Source: Leptospirales bacterium (GTDB lineage: Bacteria; Spirochaetota; Leptospiria; Leptospirales; Leptonemataceae). Taken from it: DNA of 64,000 nucleotides. Made by a program: the position numbers and the translations under genes. Location of the stretch: contig JAIBBN010000002.1 in the NCBI GenBank assembly GCA_019694655.1, positions 496,001-560,000 of the forward strand, given 5' to 3'. Every line of letters begins with the position of its first letter. Within the stretch, counting starts at the first letter, position 1. Below the pieces are notes generated by a model. That model worked only from the letters and a program-made list of their open reading frames with translations, searched no databases and had not been told where the DNA came from. Shown here one piece after another: positions 27,071 through 34,375 of this stretch.

Positions 27071-27831
27071 ACCATGCTCGCGGCCGTTTGCTCCGGCCAG
27101 TCGAAAAGTTTCAACAGCCGTCCGTCGCTCAGGCGTTCCGCCAGCAGCGCGCCATCGTCGCCAATGCCGCAAACCATGGCGGGGCCCTGCTCCGTTTGGA
27201 TCGTATGTGAATCTAAGTAATTCGCCTGGCGCAGTTCGCTCAGCCAGACTTCTTCGCCGGTCAGGCTCCCGCCAAGGATTTCGTTCAACTGACGCGCAAA
27301 GCCGGCGACACATTCATCCAGGGGCAGCGGCGCCCCGTCGGGAAAGAGGCTGAAGGCCGGCGTCTCCGGTCGCTCGTTGTCGGCAAGAATCGGCGCCTGG
27401 CCCTGCCAGTTAAGGCCAAGCCCCAGAATGACTCGCTGCAGGTCCTGCCCGCCCTCAGCCTCGGCCAGCAGTCCGGCCAGTTTGCCCCATTGGCCCTCGT
27501 GGTGCAGATAGAGATCGTTGGGCCACTTGATCGCCAGCCGACGCAACTGCGCGCCAGGCAGCTGCTGCAAGCTGCGATACAGCGCCACGCCCGCCATCAG
27601 CGGCAGTAGCGGCAGTGAAAAACGCGGCGGCAAATCCAGCGCAACAGACAGGATCAGGCTGTCGCCGGGTCGCGACTGCCAGCTTCGACCGCGACGTCCG
27701 CGCCCTCTGGTTTGCATGCGGGCCAGCACAACGACGCCAGCATTGGTTTTGCTGCGACGCAAATAGTCGTTGGTGGAATCGACCTCGTCAAGACGCAGCC
27801 ACGTTTCTGGCCGGCAATCGATCCAGCTCAT
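27067..27831 (-). CDS. birA: Biotin--[acetyl-CoA-carboxylase] ligase
   Basis: A 254-aa monofunctional biotin protein ligase. It has the family start LDEVDSTNDYLRR, the flexible loop GRGRRGRSWQS that closes over biotinyl-AMP, and the motif LAIKWPNDLYL with the catalytic Lys. There is no N-terminal helix-turn-helix, so it does not repress transcription. It attaches biotin to the carboxyl carrier protein of acyl-CoA carboxylases. It lies between an HtrA-like protease and coaX with four-base overlaps on both sides. Confidence 0.95.
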   Translation of the reverse strand: MSWIDCRPETWLRLDEVDSTNDYLRRSKTNAGVVVLARMQTRGRGRRGRSWQSRPGDSLILSVALDLPPRFSLPLLPLMAGVALYRSLQQLPGAQLRRLAIKWPNDLYLHHEGQWGKLAGLLAEAEGGQDLQRVILGLGLNWQGQAPILADNERPETPAFSLFPDGAPLPLDECVAGFARQLNEILGGSLTGEEVWLSELRQANYLDSHTIQTEQGPAMVCGIGDDGALLAERLSDGRLLKLFDWPEQTAASMV

Positions 27832-28937
27832 TCGTCGAGGCTCTCGCCGACAGTAGCCTGCAGCGTCAGGTCGTGTTTGTTGCGCATGATCTTCAGTTCC
27901 AGTTTACCGTCGACGCCAACGCGCTGCACTTCGCCAACCAGGTCTTCCGGACTCCGCACCGGCTTGTTGTTTACGCTGTAGATGAAGTCGTATTCCTGCA
28001 GTCCGGCATCCGCCGCCGCAGAACCTGGCAGCACCTGAATCACAATGACGCCCTCGCGCTGACCGACGCCCAGATCCTGCCGCAACGCAGCCGCCGGCGC
28101 GCCAACCTGAACGCCTAATGTCGGCGTACCGATGACACGCTGTTCGCGCTTCAGGCGTTCGATTACGCTCTTGGCTTCGTTAATAGGAATGGCAAAGCCA
28201 ATGCCCACATTGCCGCCGCTGGTCGAGTAGATCGACTGGTTGATGCCGATAACCTGCCCAAAGACATTTAGCAAGGGACCGCCGGAATTGCCGGGATTGA
28301 TTGAGGCGTCAGTCTGAATACGCGAAAACTGGGTGCTGTCAATACGGCGCGCCTTAGCTGAAATCGAGCCGACCGTAAAGGTGCGGTCCAGACCGAAGGG
28401 AGCGCCCAGTGCAAATGCCAGCTGGCCAACTTCAACCTTATCGGAATCGCCCAGCAGCGCCGGCACCAATCGCTCCGAAGCCGCCACACGAATGACGGCG
28501 ACGTCGCTGGCTTCATCGCGACCGACCAGCCGGGCTGTCTGCGTGGAATTGTCGCTGAAGATCACCTCAATTTTGCGCGCGCCGGCTACTACGTGGTTGT
28601 TGGTGACGATGTGTCCCTCACGATCGATCACAAAGCCGGAGCCAGCTTGCTCTTGCTGGCGGTAAAGATCCAGCCAGAAGCCGGAGCGCACCAGGACATT
28701 GGTTTTGATAAAGACCACGGAGGGCGAGGCTTTCTTATAGATATTGATAAAGGATTGCTGCAGCTCCAGTGCGGCGTGCTGGTCGTTGGCCGAGAGCGGA
28801 TCGGCTTGCGTCTGGCTGACGCCGCTGATTGCATCGCGAATCCCGCTGTAGATCAGGGGACTGAAAATCATCCCCGCCACCAATGCGGCCAGGATGGAAT
28901 TGATCAGCGTCAATCGAGAGATTCGTATTTGGGCCAT
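27828..28937 (-). CDS. HtrA/Deg-type serine protease with PDZ domain
   Basis: A 369-aa periplasmic protease. An N-terminal signal anchor (LINSILAALVAGMIFSPLIY) is followed by a trypsin-like domain with the complete triad: His115 in VTNNHVVAG, Asp145 in ASDVAVIR and Ser218 in NPGNSGGPL. One PDZ domain follows (about 275-365), which binds C-terminal peptides of substrates and controls activity, as in DegS and HhoB. One PDZ and a retained anchor make it closest in layout to DegS. The stop overlaps the birA start (ATGA). The ATG at 28937 is clear. Confidence 0.95.
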   Translation of the reverse strand: MAQIRISRLTLINSILAALVAGMIFSPLIYSGIRDAISGVSQTQADPLSANDQHAALELQQSFINIYKKASPSVVFIKTNVLVRSGFWLDLYRQQEQAGSGFVIDREGHIVTNNHVVAGARKIEVIFSDNSTQTARLVGRDEASDVAVIRVAASERLVPALLGDSDKVEVGQLAFALGAPFGLDRTFTVGSISAKARRIDSTQFSRIQTDASINPGNSGGPLLNVFGQVIGINQSIYSTSGGNVGIGFAIPINEAKSVIERLKREQRVIGTPTLGVQVGAPAAALRQDLGVGQREGVIVIQVLPGSAAADAGLQEYDFIYSVNNKPVRSPEDLVGEVQRVGVDGKLELKIMRNKHDLTLQATVGESLDE

Positions 28938-28979: not shown

Positions 28980-30176
28980 TCAGCCTCTGACGCCCAGACT
29001 GGCGCCCTCCAGCTTCTGATTGCGCGGCAGGTCCGCAGGCAAACGTCCGTCATGAGTGTTTGCGGCCACGCGGAGTAAATGATCGCCATAGTGCTGGAGC
29101 TTCCAGCGGCTGAGCAGATCCATAGCCTGCAATTCGGCCAGACTTGCCGGCTGCGCTTCGGCGATCGCTTGCAGCGCGCGGTTGTTTACGACCATCGACG
29201 GATCCATGCCGCGCAGCTCCGCAATCCGCGTGCGCCAGCGCTTCAGCCGCTTCAGCGCCGCGATGGCCGAAGACGAGAGTTCTTCGCGCCGCGGCAATTC
29301 CTCATCCTTGATAATCGCATCGCCTTGAAAGGCCTGCAGCAGACGACGTCCGTCCTTGCGCAGCAAGGCCGGATGCAAGCCGCGCACTCGCTCCAGCTCC
29401 TGCTGAGCCGCGGGCTGCAGCTGCAGCAGCTGCAGCAATACGTCGTTGGTAGCAATGCGAAAGACCGCCAGATTTTCCTGACGCGCACGATGCTCGCGCA
29501 CCGCTGCCAGCTCGCGGAGTATGGCGCGTTGGCGCGGAGCAAGATCCAGCGCGCCCGGGAGGCGCAACCATGCGTCGCTTTCCTCTCGGCGTTCCTCTGG
29601 AAGCAAGGCGGCGCTGCACAGTCGCTCCAATTCTTGATTCATTTCTTCGCGGACGCCGGATGATTCAATCTCCGGAGCCAGCCGCTGCATCAATTCGTGA
29701 AGGTAAATAGTATCGGTGTGCGCATAGTCCAGCTGCGAACGAGTCAGAGGTCGTCGCTTCCAGTTGGACTTCTGCTCCTTTTTTTCCAGAGCAAGGCCTA
29801 GATAGCGCTGCACAAGGCTGCTGAGCGAACAGGACTCCAGTCCAAGCATGCGGCAGGCAATCATCGTATCGAAAAGACAACAGAACTCAAAGGGATGCGC
29901 CCGCCGCAATTCAACCATGTCGCTGGCGGCGGCGTGAAAGATCTTCGTAATCGCAGGAGAGGCAAAGATTGGCGCCAGCGGGGCCAGATTCAAAGCCGCC
30001 AGCGGATCGATCAGGTAGTGGCCGCCAGGACTGGAGATTTGGACAAGGCAGAGCTCGGGCTGGTAGGTGAAGTAACCAGAGGATTCCGTATCCACCGCAA
30101 TCCACTGGCCCTGCCCCAGCTGCGTCGCCGCCAGTTCCAGCTGGTGCTGGCGCTCTATGTAGAGGTAGTCAGCCAC
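28980..30176 (-). CDS. rnd: Ribonuclease D-like 3'-5' exonuclease
   Basis: A 398-aa RNase D. The DEDDy exonuclease signature is complete: VDTES (Asp29, Glu31), FHAAASDMVELRR with the second Asp, and YAHTDTIYLHEL with Tyr and Asp. The C-terminal half carries HRDC-like helical repeats (LRELAAVREHRARQENLAVF). RNase D trims the 3' ends of tRNA precursors and other small RNAs. It is divergent from the signal peptidase-like gene, with only 71 bases between them. Confidence 0.92.
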   Translation of the reverse strand: MADYLYIERQHQLELAATQLGQGQWIAVDTESSGYFTYQPELCLVQISSPGGHYLIDPLAALNLAPLAPIFASPAITKIFHAAASDMVELRRAHPFEFCCLFDTMIACRMLGLESCSLSSLVQRYLGLALEKKEQKSNWKRRPLTRSQLDYAHTDTIYLHELMQRLAPEIESSGVREEMNQELERLCSAALLPEERREESDAWLRLPGALDLAPRQRAILRELAAVREHRARQENLAVFRIATNDVLLQLLQLQPAAQQELERVRGLHPALLRKDGRRLLQAFQGDAIIKDEELPRREELSSSAIAALKRLKRWRTRIAELRGMDPSMVVNNRALQAIAEAQPASLAELQAMDLLSRWKLQHYGDHLLRVAANTHDGRLPADLPRNQKLEGASLGVRG

Positions 30177-30247: not shown

Positions 30248-30886
30248 GTGGCAGCAGCGGCGCCTTTCGCTGTGCTCATCCGCGATCGCGACCTGGCGCC
30301 GCCGCGCAAGAAGGGAATCAGCCGCCAGCAGGCCCTGATTGGAGCGGTCGGCGGCCTGGCGCTTGGATTCCTGTCGCGCTTTGCCATCCATGCCTGGCTG
30401 GTTTTTCCGTTCAGCCCGCAGAGTGCAGCAATGGCCCCGGCCCTGCCGGCAGGACATCGCGTTTATGTCTGGCGCAATTTTGATCGCAATGAGCTGCAGC
30501 GCGGCACGATTGTACTCTATCGACACCCGCAACAATCGGATCGTTTCCTGATTGGCCGCATTATTGGGCTGCCAGGCGAGCAAGTGCAACTGCATGAGCG
30601 CCGGGTCTATATCAACAACCAGCTTCTTGGCCAGGCCATTGCAGCTCCCTGGGAGGCGGCTGCCGAGCGCAACGCCCTTTATCGCGAACCGCCCGATCCG
30701 GAAAATAGCGCGCACCGCGACTTTTTTCCTCCGCGCATATTGAAAGAGAACGAGGTCTTTGTCCTTGGCGACAATCGTCCCGAAGCCTTTGATTCGCGAA
30801 TTCTTGGTCCAATTGACAGACAGTTGCTAGATGGAGTCATCCACGCCGATCAAGCCCCAAACCAGGTATTCGCTACCAGTCGATGA
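30248..30886 (+). CDS. Signal peptidase I homologue lacking catalytic Ser and Lys
   Basis: A 212-aa S26 (LepB) family protein with one N-terminal membrane helix. The family framework is clear: a SxxM-P box (SAAMAPALPAG), LIGRIIGLPGEQV, RRVYINNQ and the structural box FVLGDNRPEAFDSR with LGPID. However, the nucleophile position directly before Met62 is Ala61 instead of Ser, and the general-base position in the IxRxIGLPG box is Gly103 instead of Lys. Both were checked on the DNA (gcagcaatg and attggccgc). A classical Ser/Lys signal peptidase activity is therefore not expected. GTG start; a second GTG at 30272 is possible. It may be a regulatory or scaffold paralogue. Confidence 0.85.
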   Translation: MAAAAPFAVLIRDRDLAPPRKKGISRQQALIGAVGGLALGFLSRFAIHAWLVFPFSPQSAAMAPALPAGHRVYVWRNFDRNELQRGTIVLYRHPQQSDRFLIGRIIGLPGEQVQLHERRVYINNQLLGQAIAAPWEAAAERNALYREPPDPENSAHRDFFPPRILKENEVFVLGDNRPEAFDSRILGPIDRQLLDGVIHADQAPNQVFATSR

Positions 30887-32558
30887 TCGCCTGCATGCGC
30901 TCGGCATCGGCAAACAATCCGCCGCGCTCACAGGCTCCCATGCGACCGCGACGCACGATCTCAGCAAATCCCAGCGCCAGCTCAATATAGACTCCGCCCT
31001 TGCGGCCGGCCTGGCGAATCAGTTCCGCCAGAGCCAGAGATTGATACAAGGTATCACACAATACCAGACCGTTGCTCGCCAACCAGGCGGAATCCTTGCA
31101 CATCGCTTGGGCGCGCTGAAAATCGGCGCGCGCCTGTTGCGCTGCAGAGTCCAGCGAAGCAGGCGCCGCTGTAAGCATTAGCTCCAGTTCCGCTGCCAGC
31201 GCGGCCTGCACGCGCGATCGTTGGAAGGCCTTGTGCGTATGCTCGGCAATAATCTGATGCGTGCCCTCCCAGGTCTCATTGATGATCGAATCATTGTGCA
31301 GGCGCGGAAGGATGGAGAAGTCGCCCAGGATGCCGTTGCCGCCGTGGAGTAGAATAGCCTGGTGGGTTAGCCAGGTGCTGAGGGCAGAACCTGTGTACTT
31401 GAGCAGCGGTGAGAGCGCCAGTGCGCTGGCCGCACCACGCTCCGCCAAATTCAGATTTCGAAAACACAGCAGAGTTTGCGCCTGGTGCAGGCATTGCATC
31501 TCAGCGAGGGTTCGCTGGCTGGAGGGAAAGTCCTTGATCTTTCTGCCGTAAGCTTCGCGGGCCCGGGAATAAGCGCGGGCCTCCAGAAATGCGCGCCGGC
31601 TAATGCCCGCGCCGGAAACGGCAACGTGCAGACGCGATGTCTGAATTACATACTTGATCAAGTTGGCCAATCCATGGGCCGGGCGGCCTAGCTCTTCCGC
31701 CTCGCAGTCCTCGTAGACTACTTCGACGGTGATCTTGCCCCGCGAGCCAATGATATCTTTCTTGCGCAGAATGCGCGCGCCGTTGAGCTCGCCATTGCGT
31801 TTCAGGCGGGGAACAAGAAACAGGCCGATGGTCGAACCGCCATTGACGCGCGCCGTCGTTACCCACAGATCGCCGGGATTGGAACAGAACCACTTCTCGC
31901 CGTTGAGCGTCCAGCTGCCATCGGCGCGTCGTTCCGCCACCGTCCGATTCTGAGCAACATTCGACCCGCCCACACGTTCCGTTACATACTGTCCGCACAT
32001 GAAGTGCGATGCGGATCCCCTGGCCGCAACAAGTTGTAGATAACGCTGCTGCTGCTCTTCGGCGCCGAGGGCCTTCAGGGCGCGGATCATGCCGTCGGTC
32101 ATGGCCAGAGGACAGGTAAAGCCTGCCTCGCCATTGAGATTGGCCAGGTAAGCCAGGGCCATGCGATGGAACATACTGAAGCGATGTTTCCAATCGGGGT
32201 GAAAGTCAAGGTTGCAGATTCCGTACTCGTAGGAGATGCGTCTCAACTCCAATTGTTCCGTGCAGTAGACCACGCGATCAATACGATTGCCGGCGCGATC
32301 AAATTGTTCCACGTATCCGTACTTTCCCTCCTTGTGCGCCGCCTCCGCCAGGTCGTTGAGGATGCCGCCACACAGGGCGCCGTATCCGGACAGGTGATGC
32401 TCGAGATCGGCGGCGTAAGGCGCGTCGCCCGCTGCGTTTTCCTCTGCAAGATCGCGCAACGCCGGATCAGAGTCGTAAAAATTCAGGCCGGCCACTCCTC
32501 TGTAGTCGCTGATATCGAAGGGGGCCAACCCCGGATTGGCGGAAGAATTCAGGCTCAT
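30873..32558 (-). CDS. AidB-like acyl-CoA dehydrogenase
   Basis: A 561-aa flavoprotein, longer than ordinary acyl-CoA dehydrogenases (about 380 aa) and in the AidB/long ACAD size range. It has MCGQYVTERVGGSNVAQN, WTLNGEKWFCSNPGDLWV, IKYVIQTSRLHVAVSGAG, LLHGGNGILGDFSILPR and NETWEGTHQIIAEHT, with the catalytic-type Glu in WEG. The C-terminal extension (about 455-561) matches AidB-type architecture. AidB proteins bind FAD and DNA and act in alkylation stress; others oxidise acyl-CoAs. The ATG at 32558 is preferred over an extension to 32597. The 3' end overlaps the converging signal peptidase-like gene by 14 bases. Confidence 0.9.
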   Translation of the reverse strand: MSLNSSANPGLAPFDISDYRGVAGLNFYDSDPALRDLAEENAAGDAPYAADLEHHLSGYGALCGGILNDLAEAAHKEGKYGYVEQFDRAGNRIDRVVYCTEQLELRRISYEYGICNLDFHPDWKHRFSMFHRMALAYLANLNGEAGFTCPLAMTDGMIRALKALGAEEQQQRYLQLVAARGSASHFMCGQYVTERVGGSNVAQNRTVAERRADGSWTLNGEKWFCSNPGDLWVTTARVNGGSTIGLFLVPRLKRNGELNGARILRKKDIIGSRGKITVEVVYEDCEAEELGRPAHGLANLIKYVIQTSRLHVAVSGAGISRRAFLEARAYSRAREAYGRKIKDFPSSQRTLAEMQCLHQAQTLLCFRNLNLAERGAASALALSPLLKYTGSALSTWLTHQAILLHGGNGILGDFSILPRLHNDSIINETWEGTHQIIAEHTHKAFQRSRVQAALAAELELMLTAAPASLDSAAQQARADFQRAQAMCKDSAWLASNGLVLCDTLYQSLALAELIRQAGRKGGVYIELALGFAEIVRRGRMGACERGGLFADAERMQAIIDW

Positions 32559-32675
32559 AGCAGCAGCGTAGCGGCCGATCGAGCGGCTGCCAACCAAAAG
32601 CTTGATGGAGCAAAGTGAAAGCAGCCCGCCCAGAAAATCGCTTGTTGACTGATCTAAGGCGCGAGACGAAGGTGT

Positions 32676-33422
32676 ATGACTGGATGGATCGATGTCGCGG
32701 CGCGACGCTGGCAGCAGACGCTCCTCGGCCTCTTAGCCGCGCTGGCTCTTCTGTCGGCTGCCAACTGCAAAGAGGAAGCGACGGATCTGCGTCTGATAGT
32801 TACCAAAGTAGAAGGCGACGTTCGCCTGCAGCGCGATAGTCAGGAGCGCCAATTGAAACTGGGCGATCTTCTGGAACGCAGGGATGTTATACTGACCGGC
32901 AAGGACTCGTGGGTCGATCTGCGCTCCGGGACAATCGGAGTCCTGCGTCTGAAGGCCGAATCGCGCATCGAAGTCGCCGATTTTGAACGGCGTCTCGACA
33001 TCCGCCAAACGGCCGGCCGTTCGCTTTTTGCTTTTGAAAAACTGGGCGGCCAAACGGAAGTATCGATTCAAACGCCTACGATCGTGGCCGCAGTGCGCGG
33101 TACAAGCTTTGGCGTCGCTGTTCAGGAAGAAGATGCTCGCGTGGCGGTTCTGTCCGGGGCCGTCGAGGTGCAGTCCGGCGAGCAAAGGCTGGCTGTCGCA
33201 GCCCTCAGCGAGGCGCGAAGCGGCGGCGACCGGCCGCTGCGCAGCGCGGCGCTGTCGCGCGAGGCGCGCAGCGATCTGCGCGAAATCATTGAAATTGAAA
33301 GCATCGGCGACCTCAGCGAGTTTGCTGAGATTCAAAGCCGACTCACCGATATGGAATTGAGCGAGTCCGGCGATGGCAGCGTGGACCAGTTGCCGCCGCG
33401 CAACATTCGGGAGGAACGATGA
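32676..33422 (+). CDS. FecR-domain lipoprotein
   Basis: A 248-aa protein. The signal peptide ends LLSAANC with the lipid-bearing Cys31. The mature part contains a FecR beta-domain: KVEGDVRLQRD, LKLGDLLERRDVILTGKDSW, LKAESRIEVADF, then TIVAAVRGTSFGVAV and VAVLSGAVEVQSG, the typical end of the FecR fold. FecR domains act as sensors linking outer-membrane or envelope signals to regulators. An acidic C-terminal helix (RSDLREIIEIESIGDLSEFA) follows. The stop overlaps the ATG of the TPR gene by four bases, and a membrane LuxR-type gene follows. This is probably one operon. Confidence 0.9.
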   Translation: MTGWIDVAARRWQQTLLGLLAALALLSAANCKEEATDLRLIVTKVEGDVRLQRDSQERQLKLGDLLERRDVILTGKDSWVDLRSGTIGVLRLKAESRIEVADFERRLDIRQTAGRSLFAFEKLGGQTEVSIQTPTIVAAVRGTSFGVAVQEEDARVAVLSGAVEVQSGEQRLAVAALSEARSGGDRPLRSAALSREARSDLREIIEIESIGDLSEFAEIQSRLTDMELSESGDGSVDQLPPRNIREER

Positions 33423-34375
33423 ACCGCCTGTCGATGCGAATTGCCATCCTGCCAGGTCTGTGTCTATGGATTCTGGGGGCCGTCTCGTGCGCTTCGGCGG
33501 AGTCCCTTTTCAGACGCGGGCTGGAAGCTGAGCGCGGCGAACGAAACAGCGAAGCGCTCGAATTTTATCGTGCGGCCGTGGAAGCAGATCCAGATTTTGT
33601 CAAAGCTTCCAACAATCGCGCTTTGCTCTTACTGAAAGCCGATCAGAAAGCGGAAGCGCTGGCTGAAATTGAACGCGCCCTGCAACGCCAGCCGCGATAC
33701 GCAGTCGGTCTTGTGACTCGTGGGAACATTCGCGAAGCGCTGGGGCAGAATGAATCAGCACTTGCCGACTACGCGGCAGCGCTTGAGGCGGCGCCGGAAC
33801 TGAATGAGGCTCTGTTCAATCGCGGCAACCTGCTGCTGAAAATGCGCCGCCCAGGCGAGGCGCTCACCTACCTCCGCCAGGCGCATCAGGCTCTGCCCGA
33901 TGCGCGCGATATAGCTGCGGCGCGGGCCACGGCAGAAAAATCGGCCGGCGATCCAGCCGTGGCCTTGCGCATTTTCCGCGAACTCCAACAGCAATCGCCA
34001 GGCAGCGAAAGTCTGGAGCGCCACATTGCCGAGTGCTTGCTGGCTCTAAAGGAATACCAGGCGGCCAGGGAATCCTTTGAACGCCTCTACGCACGCAGTG
34101 GTCGAAGCGCATATCTGTTTCAGGCTGCTGTGGCAGCCTACGCCGCCCAGGACCTCAATAATGCACGCAGCATGCTGCAGCAAGTGATTGAGAAAAAGCC
34201 CGACGAGGCCCGCGCCTATTACCTTCTTGGCATGCTGGACTTCAAAAACAACGCCAGAGCATCTGCCATTCAAAATCTGCAGAAGTATCTGGAATTGCAG
34301 CAAGGCGATGAGGAGACCGCCCGCCGCGTTCAGACTCTACTGCAGCACCTGCAGGGATCTCAAACCGCGCCGTAA
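33419..34375 (+). CDS. Exported TPR-repeat protein
   Basis: A 318-aa protein with an N-terminal signal sequence (IAILPGLCLWILGAVSCASA, possibly a lipobox at SCAS). About seven tetratricopeptide repeats follow from residue 28 to the end, for example RGLEAERGERNSEALEFYRA and ALVTRGN-like repeats with regular Gly/Ala at helix-packing positions. TPR arrays form a curved scaffold for protein contacts. It is translationally coupled to the FecR lipoprotein upstream, and its stop is 23 bases ahead of the membrane-bound LuxR-type gene. An envelope complex with the FecR protein is likely, by inference. Confidence 0.88.
   Translation: MNRLSMRIAILPGLCLWILGAVSCASAESLFRRGLEAERGERNSEALEFYRAAVEADPDFVKASNNRALLLLKADQKAEALAEIERALQRQPRYAVGLVTRGNIREALGQNESALADYAAALEAAPELNEALFNRGNLLLKMRRPGEALTYLRQAHQALPDARDIAAARATAEKSAGDPAVALRIFRELQQQSPGSESLERHIAECLLALKEYQAARESFERLYARSGRSAYLFQAAVAAYAAQDLNNARSMLQQVIEKKPDEARAYYLLGMLDFKNNARASAIQNLQKYLELQQGDEETARRVQTLLQHLQGSQTAP

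What the first reader, a model, noticed from the sequence alone, without database searches (positions are those of the whole stretch)
30248..30886. Signal peptidase I homologue without catalytic Ser and Lys
The protein keeps the S26 framework, including VLGDNRPEAFDSR and IGLPGE, yet the residue before the conserved Met is Ala61 (gcagcaatg) and the general-base Lys is Gly103 (attggccgc). Both changes are in coding DNA without frameshift. In E. coli LepB, Ser90 and Lys145 occupy these positions. A preserved fold without the catalytic dyad suggests a pseudoenzyme, perhaps regulating an active signal peptidase or binding lipoprotein or exported-protein signals. It could also use a different mechanism.
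Basis: partly seen in the sequence, partly recalled or inferred. Interest (0 to 1): 0.62.

Follow-up and report, generated by a model that had tools for sequence, protein, structure and literature searches.

The report
Dead signal peptidase of spirochaetes
This gene encodes a membrane protein that looks like the enzyme which trims export tags off proteins but has lost its cutting residues; its counterparts in nearly all relatives examined have lost them too, so it is probably a conserved non-cutting helper of protein export rather than a broken gene.

Summary
Window 30248-30886 (+) encodes a type I signal peptidase (S26) homologue with Ala61 and Gly103 where E. coli LepB has Ser90 and Lys145. 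The domain fold is intact. The same genome carries two S26 genes with an intact Ser/Lys dyad.

It is not a private mutation. Of 48 genomes of the class (Leptospirales and relatives), 42 gave a relative; none keeps the Lys, 15 keep the Ser. The four positions whose conservation drops most against active relatives are the Ser90, Lys145, Gly272 and Ser278 equivalents; the framework stays conserved. dN/dS in closer pairs is about 0.07-0.20, so the gene is constrained. The lineage extends to other spirochaete families, where about half keep the Lys and the rest lost it several times.

Best reading: a membrane-anchored pseudo-signal-peptidase, like Streptococcus SipA and Staphylococcus SpsA but in a different context, probably binding exported polypeptides beside active LepB. 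Loss of the catalytic residues is well supported; the partner is unknown. Every genome with a confirmed member lacks the signal recognition particle protein Ffh, but one shared ancestor could explain that.

The parts
30248..30886 (+). S26-family pseudo-signal-peptidase CDS (GTG start as listed; likely true start GTG 30272)
   Evidence: orthologue N-termini
30272..30322 (+). predicted cytosolic N-terminal segment, motif LIRDRDLAPPRKKG conserved in family f1 as (I/L)RDRDLVPxRK
   Evidence: alignment A1
30323..30400 (+). single predicted membrane helix (residues 26-51)
   Evidence: AlphaFold2/DSSP helix 26-51
30371..30841 (+). Peptidase_S26 domain (residues 42-198)
   Evidence: PF10502 match 42-197; TIGR02227 match 42-198
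30428..30430 (+). Ala61 codon, position of catalytic Ser90 of LepB
30554..30556 (+). Gly103 codon, position of general-base Lys145 of LepB
30767..30769 (+). Gly174 codon, position of LepB Gly272 (kept here, changed in the other 41 class members)
30785..30787 (+). Ala180 codon, position of LepB Ser278
28980..30176 (-). divergent neighbour: RNase D-like (3'-5' exonuclease plus HRDC), syntenic in family f1
   Evidence: Pfam; synteny
27828..28937 (-). HtrA/DegP-like trypsin-PDZ protease, syntenic in family f1
   Evidence: Pfam; synteny
30873..32597 (-). convergent neighbour: acyl-CoA dehydrogenase (AidB-like), overlaps the 3' end by 14 bases
   Evidence: Pfam; synteny

Best explanation
The gene encodes a conserved, catalytically dead signal peptidase (pseudo-S26). 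An active short S26 paralogue of an early spirochaete lost the Lys general base, and in most lineages the Ser and the residues that pack against the Lys, while the membrane anchor and the S26 beta-barrel were kept under selection. SHOWN here: the missing dyad, the kept fold (as a confident model), the class-wide loss, the constraint, the intact paralogues. INFERRED: lack of proteolysis; that the remaining groove binds extended segments of translocated polypeptides on the outer face of the cytoplasmic membrane, as proposed for SipA, so that the protein works as a holding or adaptor factor beside LepB during export.
For: Ser and Lys positions are Ala and Gly. Fold: AF2 mean pLDDT 86.6; VIA Z 18.1 to SpsB 4wvi, 15.5 to the dead homologue SipA 4n31. 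42 class members in six families, 0 of 42 with Lys, 15 of 42 with Ser, 1 of 42 with Gly272. With the trait columns masked they separate from the other class S26 proteins with support 95/88, and the other-spirochaete short S26 join the same larger clade at 100/97. The largest conservation drops are positions 61, 180, 103 and 174 = Ser90, Ser278, Lys145, Gly272, while R104, D175, D182, S183, R184, G187, M62, P64 and G69 stay at 85-100%. dN/dS 0.07-0.20 in pairs where dS is measurable. Synteny is kept across family f1. S26 paralogues with intact Ser/Lys occur in the same genomes. Literature precedent: SipA has Asp48/Gly85 in place of the dyad, a kept cleft, no peptidase activity, and a needed role in pilus assembly (PMC4049620).
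Against: No binding partner or activity was tested. Neighbourhoods differ between families (rnd/htrA in f1; GT9/DUF4254 in some f2; an EpmB-like gene in f3-f5; two FlaA genes in f23), so genomic context names no partner. Genus g3 has lost the gene at this locus, so it is dispensable there. 15 of 42 keep Ser, and 17 have an invariant Cys at the Lys position, so another chemistry in those branches cannot be excluded.
Confidence: 0.6

Rival explanations
1. It is an accessory or regulatory subunit of active LepB (or of a second S26 enzyme): it forms a hetero-complex at the Sec exit and tunes cleavage, without holding substrates by itself.
For: S26 genes with intact Ser/Lys are present alongside it in the genomes examined. 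Same fold and membrane anchor. SipA crystals are octameric, so S26 domains can oligomerise (PMC4049620).
Against: No linkage to lepB in the neighbourhoods examined, apart from an S26 gene a few kb away in G036. In genus g3 LepB persists without it.
Confidence: 0.2
2. It is still a protease with a different catalytic set, for instance the kept Ser with a new base, or a Cys-based site in families f3-f6.
For: 15 of 42 keep the Ser; all 17 members of f3-f6 carry Cys at the Lys145 position and Cys at the Met270 position.
Against: The Lys position holds C, R, G, A, S or L and the Ser position 13 different residues; Gly272 and Ser278 are lost as well. The window protein has no Cys in the S26 domain, Ala at the Ser position and Gly at the Lys position.
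Confidence: 0.1
3. A decaying paralogue on the way to loss.
For: Lost in genus g3 together with rnd; rapid divergence (window at 43% or less to its nearest relatives).
Against: dN/dS 0.07-0.20; open frame, fold residues and, in f1, synteny kept through a whole class.
Confidence: 0.05
4. It serves export or assembly of the periplasmic flagellar sheath protein FlaA.
For: In family f23 the short S26 gene lies beside two tandem FlaA-cluster genes on the opposite strand in the neighbourhoods examined; FlaA genes are widespread in the class.
Against: In the class the gene is not next to flaA except about 4 kb away in one genome (G033); g3 keeps FlaA without it, and G036 has it with no FlaA found.
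Confidence: 0.05

Closest known systems
Streptococcus pyogenes SipA (pilus assembly factor; PDB 4n31, 4k8w)
   Same: S26 fold with both catalytic residues replaced (Asp48, Gly85) and the Gly272 equivalent changed to Asn140; peptide cleft kept; no peptidase activity (PMC4049620). VIA Z 15.5 to our model.
   Different: SipA is essential for sortase-built pilus polymerisation; the window gene lies beside rnd/htrA/acyl-CoA dehydrogenase and no sortase or pilin gene was seen among the neighbours examined. Sequence profile scores are higher to active SpsB than to SipA.
Staphylococcus aureus SpsA (inactive SPase I homologue)
   Same: Lacks two conserved catalytic residues beside an active, essential SpsB (PMC12445088).
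   Different: Reported from Staphylococcus, a Gram-positive; here the dead form is fixed through a class of spirochaetes. The SpsA sequence was not compared here.
Type I signal peptidase LepB/SpsB (Pfam PF10502, MEROPS S26A)
   Same: Whole-domain homology, TIGR02227 above cut-off, N-terminal membrane helix, S26 framework motifs.
   Different: No nucleophile Ser, no general-base Lys, no Ser278 equivalent.
Short S26 of other spirochaete families with intact dyad (f31, f39, f46 and part of f23)
   Same: Same gene-tree clade (100/97), same length (about 170-220 aa).
   Different: These keep Ser, Lys and mostly Gly272.

Membership tests
Peptidase S26 / signal peptidase I (as a homology family) | Sequence match over curated cut-off | tested here: met
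   PF10502 92.2 bits vs 22.9; TIGR02227 84.6 vs 47
Peptidase S26 / signal peptidase I (as a homology family) | S26 beta-barrel fold with N-terminal membrane helix | tested here: met
   AF2 pLDDT 86.6, helix 26-51; VIA Z 18.1 to 4wvi, 15.7 to 1b12
Active type I signal peptidase | Nucleophile Ser (LepB Ser90) | tested here: not met
   Ala61
Active type I signal peptidase | General-base Lys (LepB Lys145) | tested here: not met
   Gly103; 0 of 42 class members have Lys
Active type I signal peptidase | Ser278 next to the Lys | tested here: not met
   Ala180 here; strong loss of conservation in the class
Active type I signal peptidase | Gly272 next to the Lys | tested here: met
   Gly174 kept in the window protein, but changed in the other 41 class members
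Active type I signal peptidase | Cleaves preproteins | not testable with these tools
   needs an assay
SipA-type dead S26 | S26 fold without the Ser/Lys dyad | tested here: met
SipA-type dead S26 | Encoded in a sortase/pilus locus | tested here: not met
   neighbours are rnd, htrA, acyl-CoA dehydrogenase (Pfam) and, by reading, birA, coaX and ispG-like genes
SipA-type dead S26 | Common descent with SipA rather than parallel loss | tested here: inconclusive
   profile prefers active SpsB over SipA; other-spirochaete members of the same clade are intact, which favours parallel loss; no tree with SipA was built

The most novel reading that the evidence does not exclude
The spirochaete short-S26 lineage is a dedicated export component that arose in, or was kept by, spirochaetes that lost the signal recognition particle, and that became a non-catalytic polypeptide-binding subunit at the Sec exit, with the emptied active site rebuilt around cysteine pairs in some branches. 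All genomes with a sequence-confirmed member of the lineage lack Ffh, but a single common ancestor may explain the link.
Probability: 0.15. Interest if true: 0.8.

Novelty: new variant of a known kind. Interest (0 to 1): 0.52.

Why it matters
Dead signal peptidases are known from Gram-positive cases (SipA, SpsA). Here one is fixed through a whole class of spirochaetes, and its wider lineage has lost the catalytic Lys several times while other branches keep it. That gives a comparative system for asking what an S26 fold does without proteolysis. It also matters for annotation: the standard model TIGR02227 labels this protein 'signal peptidase I', which by its active-site residues should be wrong. 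The association with absence of Ffh makes a link to an altered export pathway testable in cultivable non-pathogenic relatives.

Tried and rejected
Sequencing error or private mutation: rejected, none of the other 41 class members has the Lys. Decaying gene: disfavoured by dN/dS. FlaA partner: attractive from the f23 neighbourhood, but g3 keeps FlaA without the gene and the class shows no such linkage. EpmB-like KamA partner in f3-f5: conserved adjacency, but absent from f1/f2 neighbourhoods, so not a general partner. First related-loci scan with the single protein found nothing; alignment A1 had no usable stretch; A2 named only f2-type relatives in the class (Leptospiraceae/Leptospirales MAGs), so presence in the genus Leptospira itself was not established. 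Strict monophyly of the class members is not resolved once other spirochaetes are added (paraphyletic in the best tree, not rejected by AU, p 0.50). Independent-pairs test of Lys loss against Gly272 loss is underpowered; plain Fisher p 0.027 ignores relatedness. Literature searches on spirochaete signal peptidases yielded nothing on this lineage. No atomic coordinates were available, so Cys-Cys distances could not be measured.

Full report
OBSERVATION. The ORF 30248-30886 (+) is intact and encodes an S26 homologue (PF10502 4.5e-26; TIGR02227 84.6 bits over a cut-off of 47). Alignment with solved signal peptidases and with active paralogues places Ala61 on LepB Ser90 and Gly103 on Lys145. The S26 framework (M62, P64, R104, D182-S183-R184, G187) is present. 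Orthologue N-termini suggest that translation starts at GTG 30272 rather than 30248. AlphaFold2 gives a confident model (mean pLDDT 86.6; helix 26-51 followed by the S26 domain), closest to S. aureus SpsB (VIA Z 18.1), E. coli LepB (Z up to 15.9) and S. pyogenes SipA (Z 15.5).

SAME GENOME. Two further S26 genes, at G000:C11:28942-29565 and G000:C4:265009-265842, keep Ser, Lys and Gly272. The cell therefore need not depend on this protein for signal peptide cleavage.

RELATIVES. A profile of the family finds it through the class: families f1-f6, with 42 members recovered from 48 genomes. Not one of the 42 has Lys at the general-base position: C 17, R 11, G 6, A 5, S 2, L 1. Ser is kept in 15; the others carry 12 different residues. 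Gly272 is kept only in the window protein. The four positions with the largest drop in conservation against active S26 are 61, 180, 103 and 174, which are Ser90, Ser278, Lys145 and Gly272; framework residues stay at 85-100% (the short active set was chosen by Ser and Lys, so only the Gly272 and Ser278 drops are free of circularity). In SipA the same Gly is Asn140, explained by relief of the clash with the absent Lys (PMC4049620). dN/dS between close pairs is 0.07-0.20 where dS is finite. In family f1 the gene is syntenic, divergent from rnd-htrA-birA-coaX and beside an acyl-CoA dehydrogenase in most genomes. Genus g3 has lost both rnd and this gene at the locus while keeping htrA, birA and coaX.

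WIDER LINEAGE. Short S26 proteins (about 170-220 aa) of spirochaete families f12, f23, f31, f35, f39, f41 and f46 join the same clade (100/97). Of 40 examined, 19 keep Lys and 21 have S, R, G, L, T or V. The class members are one side of a branch against the other class S26 proteins (95/88 with trait columns masked). With other spirochaetes added they are paraphyletic in the best tree, but monophyly is not rejected (AU p 0.50). So the enzyme died either once before the class radiated or twice, and several more times elsewhere.

REBUILT ACTIVE SITE. In all 17 members of f3-f6 the Lys145 and Met270 positions are both Cys; in genus g4, L029 and L099 the Gly272 and Ser278 positions are both Cys. 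From knowledge of LepB these positions surround the Lys, so the vacated pocket may hold a disulfide or a metal. That is inference: no coordinates were available. The model of an f3-type member is acceptable (pLDDT 81.1).

MECHANISM. The best-supported statement is a conserved pseudoenzyme: no nucleophile, no base, fold and anchor kept under selection. Its working is inferred: a groove that once held the signal peptide c-region can still bind extended polypeptide, so a holding or adaptor role at the Sec exit, as proposed for SipA, is the most economical reading. A subunit or regulator of LepB is the main rival. Neighbourhoods do not settle it: rnd/htrA in f1, GT9/DUF4254 in some f2, EpmB-like KamA in f3-f5, tandem FlaA-cluster genes in f23 and HEAT-repeat or aminotransferase genes in f12 and f31.

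SRP. No class genome has Ffh (0 of 48 over cut-off; only six weak partial matches of at most 81 bits), which extends the published absence in Leptospira (PMC4758666). In the phylum sample 228 of 345 genomes have Ffh; none of the 41 non-class genomes whose short S26 was read by sequence and lies in families f12, f23, f31, f35, f39, f41 or f46 is among them. The lineage and SRP therefore look mutually exclusive here. Since the families concerned may share one ancestor, this is a correlation with possibly one event behind it; families f19 and f26 have genomes without an Ffh match and no confirmed member of the lineage, and g3 lacks Ffh and the syntenic gene.

VERDICT. The exact role is open. Dead S26 proteins are known (SipA, SpsA); a class-wide fixed dead form with repeated parallel losses in its sister branches is a new variant of that kind.

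Noticed in passing
class-wide (48 genomes incl. G000) and other spirochaete families: Ffh (SRP54) is absent from every class genome and from every other spirochaete genome with a sequence-confirmed short-S26 lineage member, but present in 228 of 345 phylum genomes.
   Followed up: partly
L052:3940-4848, L123:8881-9810, L128:9858-10748 and other f3-f5 loci: In families f3-f5 the pseudo-S26 gene directly precedes (often overlapping) an EpmB/KamA-like radical SAM gene.
   Followed up: partly
L169, L170, L172, L174 and other family f23 loci: The short S26 gene lies beside two tandem FlaA-cluster (flagellar sheath) genes on the opposite strand in the f23 neighbourhoods examined.
   Followed up: partly
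L117 and L120 (G015:C102 and G015:C18): Two further S26 homologues in one f1 genome lack part or all of the dyad (Gly/Ser and Ser/Gly) outside the main clade: other degenerate S26 proteins.
   Followed up: no
L098 (G014:C9:55788-56243): A very divergent S26-like protein of 179 aa in genus g3, at another place, lacking recognisable Ser/Lys.
   Followed up: no
window 32676-34375: By eye, a FecR-like exported protein followed by a TPR protein with 4-base overlap, next to the acyl-CoA dehydrogenase; not searched against families.
   Followed up: no
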